Source: Candidatus Saganbacteria bacterium
Lineage (GTDB): Bacteria > Margulisbacteria > WOR-1 > O2-12-FULL-45-9 > XYB2-FULL-48-7
Assembly: GCA_020051815.1 (NCBI GenBank)
Contig: JAGVQF010000139.1
Coordinates: 1 to 12,885 of the forward strand
DNA length: 12,885 bases
Reading direction: 5' to 3'
Shown: one piece after another, positions 2,838 to 11,690 of the stretch
Numbering within the stretch: the first letter of the stretch is position 1
Layout of the letters: each line of letters begins with the position of its first letter
The notes under the pieces: model-generated
Databases searched by the model: none
What the model was told of the DNA's origin: nothing
The model's input: the letters and a program-made list of their open reading frames with translations, nothing else
Position numbers and translations under genes: made by a program

Positions 2838-2846
2838 TGATATAAT
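2838..2846 (+). promoter_or_regulatory. Extended -10 promoter of the methyltransferase gene, predicted leaderless
   Basis: TGATATAAT is a perfect extended -10 element (TGN plus TATAAT at 2841-2846). Only 8 bases separate it from the ATG at 2855, so transcription should begin at or within a couple of bases of the start codon. There is no convincing -35 box, as is normal for extended -10 promoters, and no Shine-Dalgarno sequence. Confidence 0.75.
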
Positions 2847-2850
2847 TTTA
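2845..2850 (-). promoter_or_regulatory. Possible divergent -10 box for the MraZ-like gene
   Basis: Read on the minus strand this is TAAAAT (5 of 6 to TATAAT). It overlaps the plus-strand TATAAT by two bases, the same geometry as the shared promoter near 10495. It would give a leader of about 37 bases to the longest start. No TGN extension is present, so it is weaker than the plus-strand element. Confidence 0.4.
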
Positions 2851-2854
2851 ATTC

Positions 2855-3499
2855 ATGGACAAACAGGCGCAGATCGCGTATTTTGAGGGCTTGCTGGCCC
2901 AGCACGGGGCCAATTACCTGGCGCTCGATTGGAACTCGACCGAGAGCCAGCGCCTGCGCTTTAAGATCCTAAAAGAGCTTTTTCTCTACGGCAAAAAGGC
3001 CTCCGGTATTTCGCTTCTTGACGTCGGCTGTGGGCTGGGCGACCTCTACGGATTCTTTAAGGCGGATGGCCTGCTTAATCGCAATAAGATAAGCTATGCC
3101 GGCTACGATATTTCGCCCAAGCTTGTCGAAGCGGCGAAAAAAAGATATCCCGACGCAAAATTTGAGGTCAAAGATGTCATCGAAGAGCGCCACGTGCCCA
3201 AATTCGATTACATCATCTGTTCCGGCGTCTTCAATATCCGCACCACCGACCGGCTCGACCATCTCGATTTTGTCAAAGAGATGATGTTCCGGCTCTACGA
3301 CCTCTGTTCATACGGGGTGGGGCTGAATTTCTTGAGCGAGGGCGGCTTGCCGACTGCCAGCGCGGCTGACCTGGCCAGCGGCCGCTATTTTTTCTTTAAC
3401 CCGGAGGAAATACTAAGCTACAGCCGCTTCATCACAACCCGCTATATCATAAGACACGATTATCATCCGGGCGATTTTACGCTATACTTATTGAAATGA
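2855..3499 (+). CDS. Class I SAM-dependent methyltransferase
   Basis: Predicted cytosolic methyltransferase of 214 residues; substrate unknown. Motif I is clear (LLDVGCGLGDL, residues 54-64), followed by the acidic residue that contacts the SAM ribose in YAGYDIS (Asp85), motif III-like FEVKDV (102-107), and a YIICSGVFN strand corresponding to motif IV. The N-terminal 50 residues form a likely helical cap, and the C-terminal half has no recognisable substrate-binding motif. The start codon sits 8 bases after a perfect extended -10 box, so the mRNA is probably leaderless. The gene opens the plus-strand run, and its TGA overlaps the ATG of the channel gene (ATGA). Nothing in the context indicates whether it modifies a protein, a lipid or a small molecule. 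Confidence 0.88.
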   Translation: MDKQAQIAYFEGLLAQHGANYLALDWNSTESQRLRFKILKELFLYGKKASGISLLDVGCGLGDLYGFFKADGLLNRNKISYAGYDISPKLVEAAKKRYPDAKFEVKDVIEERHVPKFDYIICSGVFNIRTTDRLDHLDFVKEMMFRLYDLCSYGVGLNFLSEGGLPTASAADLASGRYFFFNPEEILSYSRFITTRYIIRHDYHPGDFTLYLLK

Positions 3500-9631: not shown

Positions 9632-9928
9632 ATGCCTCTTTACGACTACAAATGTTCAAAATGCGGCCATGTCTTCGAAGCGCTGCAGAAGATGTCCGAG
9701 GAGCCGCTCAAATATTGCCCGGTCTGCAAGGGGCCGATCAAACGGCTGATCTCGGCGGCCGGCGTTATTTTTAAAGGTTCGGGCTTTTACGCCACCGATT
9801 CTGGGAAGAAGGGGGAAAGGGCGGAAAAGGGAGATAAGGCGGAAAAGACTTTACCCAAGCCAGCCGAAAAGACGGAAAGTAAACCAGCTGAAACAAAGAA
9901 AGAAACAACCCCAAAGGTTGCCGGTTAA
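9632..9928 (+). CDS. FmdB-family zinc-ribbon protein
   Basis: Small protein (98 residues) whose first 45 residues match the FmdB putative regulatory zinc-ribbon family: [16 protein letters not shown], followed by [15 protein letters not shown]. The four zinc ligands are Cys8, Cys11, Cys29 and Cys32. Residues 46-55 ([10 protein letters not shown]) are the usual family continuation. The remaining 40 residues are a Lys/Glu/Pro-rich, probably disordered tail encoded by a purine-rich tract with repeated GCGGAAAAG motifs. The family is widespread, and its function remains poorly defined; a regulatory or nucleic-acid-binding role is only inferred. The gene has its own leaderless-type promoter, and its stop overlaps that of the convergent trpG gene. 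Confidence 0.9.
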
Positions 9929-10488
9929 AGCGCGAGGAAATTAGCCAGCAGTTGTTTGCCGGCCTCGGTCAAGATCGACTCCGGATGGAACTGCACCCCT
10001 TCGACTTTTAACTTCTTGTGCCGCAGGCCCATGATTTCCTTTCCCTTTGTCCAGGCGCTGATCTCCAGCTCTTTGGGCAGGCTCTTTCTCTCGACCAGGA
10101 GCGAGTGATAGCGCGTGGCGGTAAAAGGATTGGGCAGGCCCTTAAAGAGGGTCTTGCCGTCATGATAGATCTCTGACGTCTTGCCGTGCATCACGGTCCC
10201 TTTTCTCACGATCTTGCCGCCGAAGACCTCGCCGATCGCCTGATGGCCCAGGCAAACGCCCAGAATAGGAGTTTTGCCGGCGAACTCCCGGATAGCTTCT
10301 TCAGAGATGCCGGCCTGGTCGGGCGTACCCGGCCCCGGCGAGATGACGATGCGGGAAGGTTTTAGCTTTTTGATGCCGGCGAGCGTGATCTTGTCATTGC
10401 GATAGACTTTGATCTCCTCTCCCAACTCGCCAAAATACTGGACGAGGTTATAGGTGAACGAATCGTAATTATCGATCACAAGCAGCAT
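9925..10488 (-). CDS. trpG/pabA: Anthranilate/aminodeoxychorismate synthase glutamine amidotransferase
   Basis: Class I glutamine amidotransferase subunit that hydrolyses glutamine and passes ammonia to the chorismate-binding partner (TrpE for tryptophan, PabB for folate). From the ATG at 10488 it has 187 residues, the family length, and begins [20 protein letters not shown], the classical N terminus. The reading frame is open 30 codons further upstream, but that extension lies inside femAB and is not family-like. The triad is visible: Cys79 in GVCLGHQ, and His168 and Glu170 in FHPES. SPGPGTP (50-56) and MHGKTS (100-105) are also typical. The partner synthase is not in the window, so tryptophan versus folate use cannot be decided; in many bacteria one subunit serves both. 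The gene shares a palindromic promoter with femAB and has no leader. Confidence 0.95.
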
Positions 10489-10505
10489 GTTATAATTATA
10501 ACATG
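10486..10505. promoter_or_regulatory. Perfect 20-bp palindrome holding two start codons and two divergent extended -10 boxes
   Basis: CATGTTATAATTATAACATG is its own reverse complement. On the plus strand TGTTATAAT (-10 hexamer at 10491-10496) is followed after 6 bases by the femAB ATG (10503). On the minus strand the same sequence (-10 hexamer at 10500-10495) is followed after 6 bases by the trpG ATG (10488). The two hexamers share two bases. Both mRNAs are predicted to begin at their start codons. It could also act as an operator. Confidence 0.8.
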
Positions 10506-11570: not shown

Positions 11571-11690
11571 AAACTTCAAACTTCAAACATCCAACATCAA
11601 AACAATTGGGAAAAGGGTCGAATTTCCAATTTTTCAATTGTGAGTTTTTTGATTGTTTTGAAGTTTGAAGTTGGATGTTTGAGGTTAAAT
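11571..11690. repeat. Inverted pair of 7-bp repeat arrays between femAB and murE
   Basis: The left arm has four 7-bp units (AAACTTC, AAACTTC, AAACATC, CAACATC; 11571-11598). The right arm has five (GTTTTGA, AGTTTGA, AGTTGGA, TGTTTGA, GGTTAAA; 11655-11689) in the opposite sense. The arms share the exact complementary blocks TCAAACATCCAAC and TCAAAACAAT and differ by one unit, so the RNA or single-stranded DNA can fold into a long hairpin. A second, smaller pair (AATTGGGAAA and TTTCCAATT) lies in the middle. The 124-base gap contains no other gene. GAGG at 11681-11684, the likely murE ribosome binding site, is part of the right arm. Confidence 0.85.

What the first reader, a model, noticed from the sequence alone, without database searches (positions are those of the whole stretch)
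10486..10505. Two divergent genes start inside one perfect 20-bp palindrome that is also a bidirectional promoter
CATGTTATAATTATAACATG holds the trpG start codon (minus), the femAB start codon (plus) and a TGTTATAAT extended -10 box on each strand, with hexamers overlapping by two bases and 6 bases from -10 to ATG on both sides. The sequence shows this directly. It implies that two leaderless mRNAs of unrelated pathways (amidotransferase and cell-wall ligase) are driven from one symmetric site that polymerase can read either way but not both at once. Bidirectional promoters based on -10 symmetry are known in bacteria; having both start codons inside the palindrome is extreme.
Basis: partly seen in the sequence, partly recalled or inferred. 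Interest (0 to 1): 0.75.

Follow-up and report, generated by a model that had tools for sequence, protein, structure and literature searches.

The report
Two genes starting from one promoter
A 20-letter DNA palindrome in an uncultured bacterium appears to be a complete two-way promoter that also contains the first codon of each of the two genes it drives, and the same compact design recurs at other gene pairs in its class.

Summary
Nearest relatives are WOR-1/Saganbacteria. Extended -10s 6 nt before ATG recur through this class, so leaderless start looks like a lineage habit. The trpG/femAB pair stays divergent in relatives. In the window's order all 15 genomes tabulated (of 19 searched) keep the two -10s overlapping or one base apart, but both ATGs lie inside the palindrome only in the window's genus, 2 of 22 rows. 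So it is two superposed promoters, not a conserved operator. Of gaps 6-29, only 14 fits two such promoters without conflict. The bare geometry occurs 30 times in 31 class genomes against 2 control sites; 18 have ORFs on both sides. The strict form occurs 14 times in the class; of 178 other genomes only one matches, by a repeat. Patterns for gaps 15-17 give none. Transcription is unmeasured. New variant of a known kind.

The parts
10486..10505 (.). perfect 20-bp palindrome: superposed leaderless promoters with both start codons
10491..10496 (+). -10 hexamer TATAAT of femAB; its extended TG (10488-10489) uses the complement of the trpG start codon's A
   Evidence: relatives
10495..10500 (-). -10 hexamer TATAAT of trpG (read on minus); its extended TG is the complement of C10502 and A10503 on the femAB side
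   Evidence: 21 of 22 rows keep TGnTATAAT 6-9 nt from the trpG ATG
10503..10505 (+). femAB start codon, inferred +1 of the plus transcript
   Evidence: position 7 after the -10; transcription start inferred, not measured
10486..10488 (-). trpG start codon, inferred +1 of the minus transcript
   Evidence: TIGR00566 aligned from residue 1; transcription start inferred
9925..10488 (-). trpG/pabA glutamine amidotransferase
   Evidence: PF00117, TIGR00566
10503..11570 (+). FemAB-family protein
   Evidence: PF02388
11695..12885 (+). murE (runs off the window), possibly in the same operon as femAB
   Evidence: in G001 the femAB stop overlaps the start of a murE-like ORF

Best explanation
The palindrome is a minimal bidirectional promoter for two leaderless mRNAs. 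On each strand TGTTATAAT serves as a sufficient extended -10 (no -35), and RNA polymerase starts 7 nt after it, at the A of ATG, giving trpG mRNA to the left and femAB(-murE) mRNA to the right. The two starts are 15 bp apart and the -10s share two bases. Each start codon's first base, with the base before it, supplies on the opposite strand the TG of the other promoter, so codon and promoter constrain each other. The two open complexes would melt the same DNA, so only one polymerase can sit there at a time. Shown: sequence, geometry, conservation and recurrence. Inferred: start sites, leaderless translation and exclusion.
For: TGnTATAAT-N-ATG peaks at N=6 in sampled DNA of G001: 17 ATGs with ORF of 100 codons or more at N=6, 0-4 at any other N from 0 to 20; G000 has 5 at N=6 and at most 3 elsewhere. 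The N=6 pattern occurs 24 times in G000 and 40 times in G001, control 0 in both. No Shine-Dalgarno-like run before either gene. trpG keeps a perfect TGnTATAAT 6-9 nt from ATG in 21 of 22 rows; femAB has a perfect TGnTATAAT in all 15 tabulated genomes of the order, and the two -10s overlap or lie one base apart there (G013 placed by inspection). The geometry has 30 sites against 2 control sites in 31 genomes, 18 with ORFs starting at both ATGs, 14 of those 18 with TG on both strands. Strict form: 14 sites in 9 of 31 class genomes; of 178 other genomes only one matches, by 9 copies of one repeat; control 2 sites in 209 genomes. Patterns for gaps 15, 16 and 17: none. Combinatorics explain why gap 14.
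Against: No transcript data. The femAB start lies 7-15 nt after its -10 in 17 of 22 rows and 6 nt in 5 (G000, G001, G022, G023, G029), so in most relatives femAB would have a leader of one to nine nt. In G004 the spacing is broader, with as many ATGs at N=8 as at N=6. Of the 30 geometry sites 9 have an ORF of 60 codons on one side only and 3 on neither. The crude gene caller finds a -10 at 6-8 nt in only 5 of 28 divergent genes of G000 (controls 2 and 2), 23 of 76 in G001 (8 and 3) and 18 of 54 in G004 (3 and 4). Over all 30 sites pair 4/17 is complementary more often than in shuffles (19 against 13.5, fraction 0.010), though not among the 18 two-sided ones. The patterns for gaps 15 and 16 fix 16 bases against 14 for gaps 14 and 17, so they are somewhat stricter tests.
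Confidence: 0.86

Rival explanations
1. The palindrome is an operator for a dimeric transcription factor that co-regulates the two genes, and its symmetry reflects the dimer.
For: Perfect 20-bp symmetry between divergent genes. The free pair 5/16 is complementary at 10 of 18 two-sided sites against 6.1 in shuffles (fraction 0.027, orthologous sites counted separately); over all 30 sites pair 4/17 is also in excess, 19 against 13.5 (fraction 0.010).
Against: At the 18 two-sided sites the other three free pairs show no excess. The same arrangement occurs at functionally unrelated pairs. Relatives keep the -10s and lose the full symmetry. Nine of ten pairs are forced by the promoters and start codons.
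Confidence: 0.07
2. Only one strand (trpG) has a working promoter; the femAB half is a by-product of -10 near-symmetry, and femAB-murE is transcribed from elsewhere.
For: The trpG -10 and its spacing (6-9 nt) are better kept than the femAB spacing (6-15 nt). Basal activity of the five bidirectional promoters tested in E. coli is low (PMC12825309).
Against: Full TGnTATAAT for femAB in all 15 tabulated genomes of the order, and a separate TGnTAnAAT before femAB in the six rows where the promoters are apart. Any promoter further upstream of femAB would lie inside trpG.
Confidence: 0.12
3. Chance coincidence in AT-rich intergenic DNA.
For: 9 of 10 pairs follow from two promoters at one spacing.
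Against: 0 of 200 shuffles; 30 against 2 sites; none for the patterns of neighbouring gaps; kept letter for letter in G001 at 81% FemAB identity.
Confidence: 0.02

Closest known systems
Bacterial bidirectional promoters based on -10 symmetry (Warman, Grainger and colleagues; PMC12825309, PMC10268837)
   Same: Two divergent starts from one short pseudo-symmetric -10 region; opposing polymerases exclude each other sterically (first part of each paper read, introductions included).
   Different: Published common start distances are 18, 10 and 23 bp, with small variations allowed. Here the inferred distance is 15 bp, with both starts at ATG. Published logic couples +1A to T at -18 of the other promoter; here +1A is T at -15 of the other promoter's extended -10. 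'leaderless' and '15 bp' do not occur in the main text of PMC12825309.
Leaderless genes with the -10 adjacent to the ORF (Deinococcus-Thermus, PMC12340547; survey PMC3160421)
   Same: -10 motif about 6-7 bp before the start codon, transcript without leader (PMC12340547 section 7 read; PMC3160421 passages).
   Different: 'bidirectional', 'divergent' and 'palindrom' occur 0 times in the main text of either paper. Here two such genes share one promoter, in the TG-extended full TATAAT form.

Membership tests
Bacterial bidirectional promoter | -10 elements on both strands sharing bases | tested here: met
   Overlap of two bases, both perfect TATAAT
Bacterial bidirectional promoter | divergent starts at the commonly reported distances of 18, 10 or 23 bp | tested here: not met
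   Inferred distance is 15 bp. The source gives these as the most common distances and allows small variations, so this marks a variant rather than an exclusion. The TG-extended leaderless form at 18 bp has 0 hits in 31 genomes.
Bacterial bidirectional promoter | RNA made in both directions from the site | not testable with these tools
   No transcript data held
Leaderless gene | -10 motif 6-7 bp before the start codon | tested here: met
   6 nt on both strands; peak at 6 in G001 and G000 samples
Leaderless gene | no Shine-Dalgarno sequence before the start | tested here: met
   20 nt upstream of each ATG inspected
Leaderless gene | mRNA 5' end at the start codon | not testable with these tools
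   Needs 5'-end mapping
Transcription factor operator | symmetry conserved beyond what the promoters require | tested here: not met
   At two-sided sites no excess at three of four free pairs and a weak one at the fourth; over all 30 sites an excess at pair 4/17; full symmetry lost in relatives

The most novel reading that the evidence does not exclude
A whole bacterial class (WOR-1/Saganbacteria) uses one fixed module, CATGnTATAATTATAnCATG, in which two leaderless genes are born from a single 20-bp site and each start codon is at the same time part of the opposite gene's promoter. The 15-bp start spacing would be the preferred bidirectional distance of this class, set by the joint fit of start codon and extended -10, unlike the 18 bp reported for other bacteria.
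Probability: 0.6. Interest if true: 0.72.

Novelty: new variant of a known kind. Interest (0 to 1): 0.62.

Why it matters
If confirmed, 20 bp carry two promoters and two translation starts, which would be a very compact expression unit (my judgement; no call ranks them). It gives a sequence rule that predicts transcription start, translation start and gene orientation in an uncultured lineage, and can correct gene starts in its genomes. It also makes a clean test of polymerase exclusion, because both directions have identical core elements and no recognisable -35.

Tried and rejected
Listing all divergent ATG pairs by ORF alone drowned in shadow ORFs, so I used motif-only geometry searches with reversed controls. 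Operator reading: rejected on the free-pair test and on relatives. A back-to-back form at gap 30 (16 fixed bases): 1 site in 31 genomes. Ancestral overlap across the whole class: left open, since G028 has the two -10s one base apart and G021 keeps the overlapping core beside trpG, both outside the order.

Literature: the listings (12 of 29 papers shown; 15 of 497; 15 of 51; 10 of 18; 15 of 261; 8 of 8; 12 of 35) show no paper that, by title and start of abstract, describes a bidirectional leaderless promoter with both start codons inside. Most of the hits of the larger searches were not shown, and only an open-access library is held, so this is weak evidence of absence. None of the 10 papers shown contains 'leaderless'. 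The 2021 paper by Warman and colleagues (recalled) is not held; its content is cited only through the two later papers.

Full report
Observation. The minus gene is a TrpG/PabA amidotransferase, with TIGR00566 above its cut-off and aligned from residue 1; the plus gene is a FemAB-family protein. A window-wide scan finds no longer perfect palindrome, and none of 200 shuffles gives even a 3-mismatch copy. No -35/-10 pair passes the promoter scan there, and no Shine-Dalgarno-like run is seen.

Lineage.

Leaderless habit. In sampled DNA the extended -10 TGnTATAAT stands 6 nt before an ATG opening at least 100 codons 17 times in G001 (569 kb), 5 times in G000 (230 kb) and 4 times in G004 (400 kb). 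In G001 other spacings from 0 to 20 give 0-4; in G000 spacing 9 gives 3; in G004 spacing 8 also gives 4. Genome-wide the N=6 pattern gives 24 hits in G000 and 40 in G001 with control 0 in both, and in each of the 31 class genomes the hits exceed the control. With a crude gene caller, divergent genes carry a -10 at 6-8 nt in 23 of 76 (G001; controls 8 and 3), 18 of 54 (G004; 3 and 4) and 5 of 28 (G000; 2 and 2). So leaderless starts are common but not universal, and G000 alone is weak on this count.

The gene pair in relatives. FemAB is found in 37 of 70 genomes searched. I extracted the trpG-femAB region for the 27 with strong matches in the class: two have trpG on another contig (G018, G020) and three have gaps of 179-681 nt (G019, G021, G024); the other 22 were tabulated. 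In 21 of 22 trpG keeps a perfect TGnTATAAT 6-9 nt from its ATG; the exception, G013, has an insertion there. The two -10s overlap by two bases in 11 of 22, lie one base apart in 4, and are 11-47 nt apart in 6. G013 keeps the overlapping core, by inspection, but has the insert on the trpG side. The femAB start lies 6 nt after its -10 in 5 of 22 rows (G000, G001, G022, G023, G029) and 7-15 nt in the rest. Only G000 and G001 have the 14-nt gap with both ATGs inside the palindrome. Of the 19 genomes of the window's order that were searched, three have no FemAB match (G009, G016, G017) and G018 is unlinked; the other 15 form one clade in a FemAB tree (support 100/98) and all 15 have overlapping or one-base-apart -10s, with states labelled by me. 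Outside it G028 has them one base apart and G021 keeps the core beside trpG. The conserved thing is the promoter overlap. The palindrome is its tightest form.

Recurrence. The palindrome at up to 3 mismatches is found in 30 of 31 class genomes (90 sites by the table, reversed control 0) and in 23 of 159 other genomes (31 sites, control 11). I examined 50 of the 90 class sites, from 18 genomes (those of G002, G004, G008 and G021-G030 were not looked at), and 25 of the 31 others. Counting an ORF of at least 50 codons, or 20 if it runs off the stretch, starting within a few nt of the site's end, 23 class sites have one on both sides, 25 on one side and 2 on none; elsewhere 1, 17 and 7. A search blind to the free positions (CATNNTANNATNNTANNATG) gives 30 sites in 15 of 31 class genomes and 2 control sites; 18 of the 30 have ORFs of at least 60 codons from both ATGs, 9 from one, 3 from neither. 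The ten pairs named with Pfam or NCBIfam are trpG/femAB, mannosyltransferase/glycosyltransferase 2, bioB/bioH-like (the bioH match is below its cut-off), short-chain dehydrogenase/aldo-keto reductase, RlmN-like radical SAM/ThiC, arginase family/PLP enzyme, alanine dehydrogenase-like/HMA protein, aminotransferase/RadC, dehydroquinase/penicillin-binding protein, and MraW/IGPS. The arginase-family pair in G023 carries a letter-perfect copy of the palindrome.

Specificity. The strict form CATGNTANNATNNTANCATG (14 fixed bases) has 14 sites in 9 of 31 class genomes. Among 178 other genomes only G102 matches, with nine copies of one repeat; the reversed control has 2 sites in all 209. The corresponding patterns at gap 17 (14 fixed bases, start distance 18) and at gaps 15 and 16 (16 fixed bases each) have none in 31 genomes, and the back-to-back form at gap 30 (16 fixed bases) has one.

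Why this geometry. Placing ATG, a 6-nt spacer and TGnTATAAT on both strands produces contradictions at every gap from 6 to 29 except 14, where the letters merge into CATGnTATAATTATAnCATG. At gap 14 the complement of each gene's +1 A and of the base before it is the TG of the other promoter. Gaps 15 and 17 have only one conflict, so their absence suggests that full consensus matters here; gap 16 has four conflicts and its absence says less. At the 18 two-sided sites symmetry at the free pairs is not in excess, except weakly at pair 5/16, 10 of 18 against 6.1 with orthologous sites counted separately; over all 30 sites pair 4/17 is in excess, 19 against 13.5. In one-sided leaderless genes of the samples the base before ATG is C in 12 of 19, so the opposite TG is often already present.

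Mechanism. I conclude that polymerase bound by an extended -10 starts at the A of either ATG and that the two open complexes exclude each other (inferred). At the bidirectional promoters tested in E. coli such exclusion shows only when one direction is strongly active (PMC12825309; first part and passages read), so antagonism between trpG and femAB should not be assumed. The plus transcript may include murE, since in G001 the femAB stop overlaps the start of a murE-like ORF.

Novelty. Both ingredients are known: bidirectional promoters by -10 symmetry and -10-adjacent leaderless genes. Their fusion in one fixed 15-bp geometry with both start codons inside was not seen in the listings named under Tried and rejected.

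Noticed in passing
window 11572-11686: An imperfect inverted repeat (35-nt arms, 83% complementary) sits between femAB and murE; in G001 these genes overlap with no room for such an element, so it looks like a small insertion.
   Followed up: partly
L045 (G013), just upstream of femAB: An insertion of roughly 75-80 nt separates the trpG ATG from its promoter, and the new leader carries an AGGAGG run before the ATG, as if a Shine-Dalgarno sequence replaced the leaderless start.
   Followed up: no
window 2838-2857: TGATATAAT stands 8 nt before the ATG at 2855, another likely leaderless or near-leaderless gene in the window.
   Followed up: no
window 9925-9928: The trpG stop and the stop of a convergent FmdB-type zinc-ribbon gene (9632-9928) overlap by four bases.
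   Followed up: no
L050/L070 (G021), between trpG and femAB: 681 nt lie between trpG and the femAB match, but the trpG side still reads GTTATAATTATAACATA, so the two-way core persists.
   Followed up: no
L266 and L267: bioB and a bioH-like hydrolase share the same two-way geometry in two genera (opposite contig orientation), a case where both genes plausibly belong to one pathway.
   Followed up: partly
G102, nine places: CATGATATCATGATATCATG occurs in nine exact copies, a repeat that looks unrelated to this finding.
   Followed up: no
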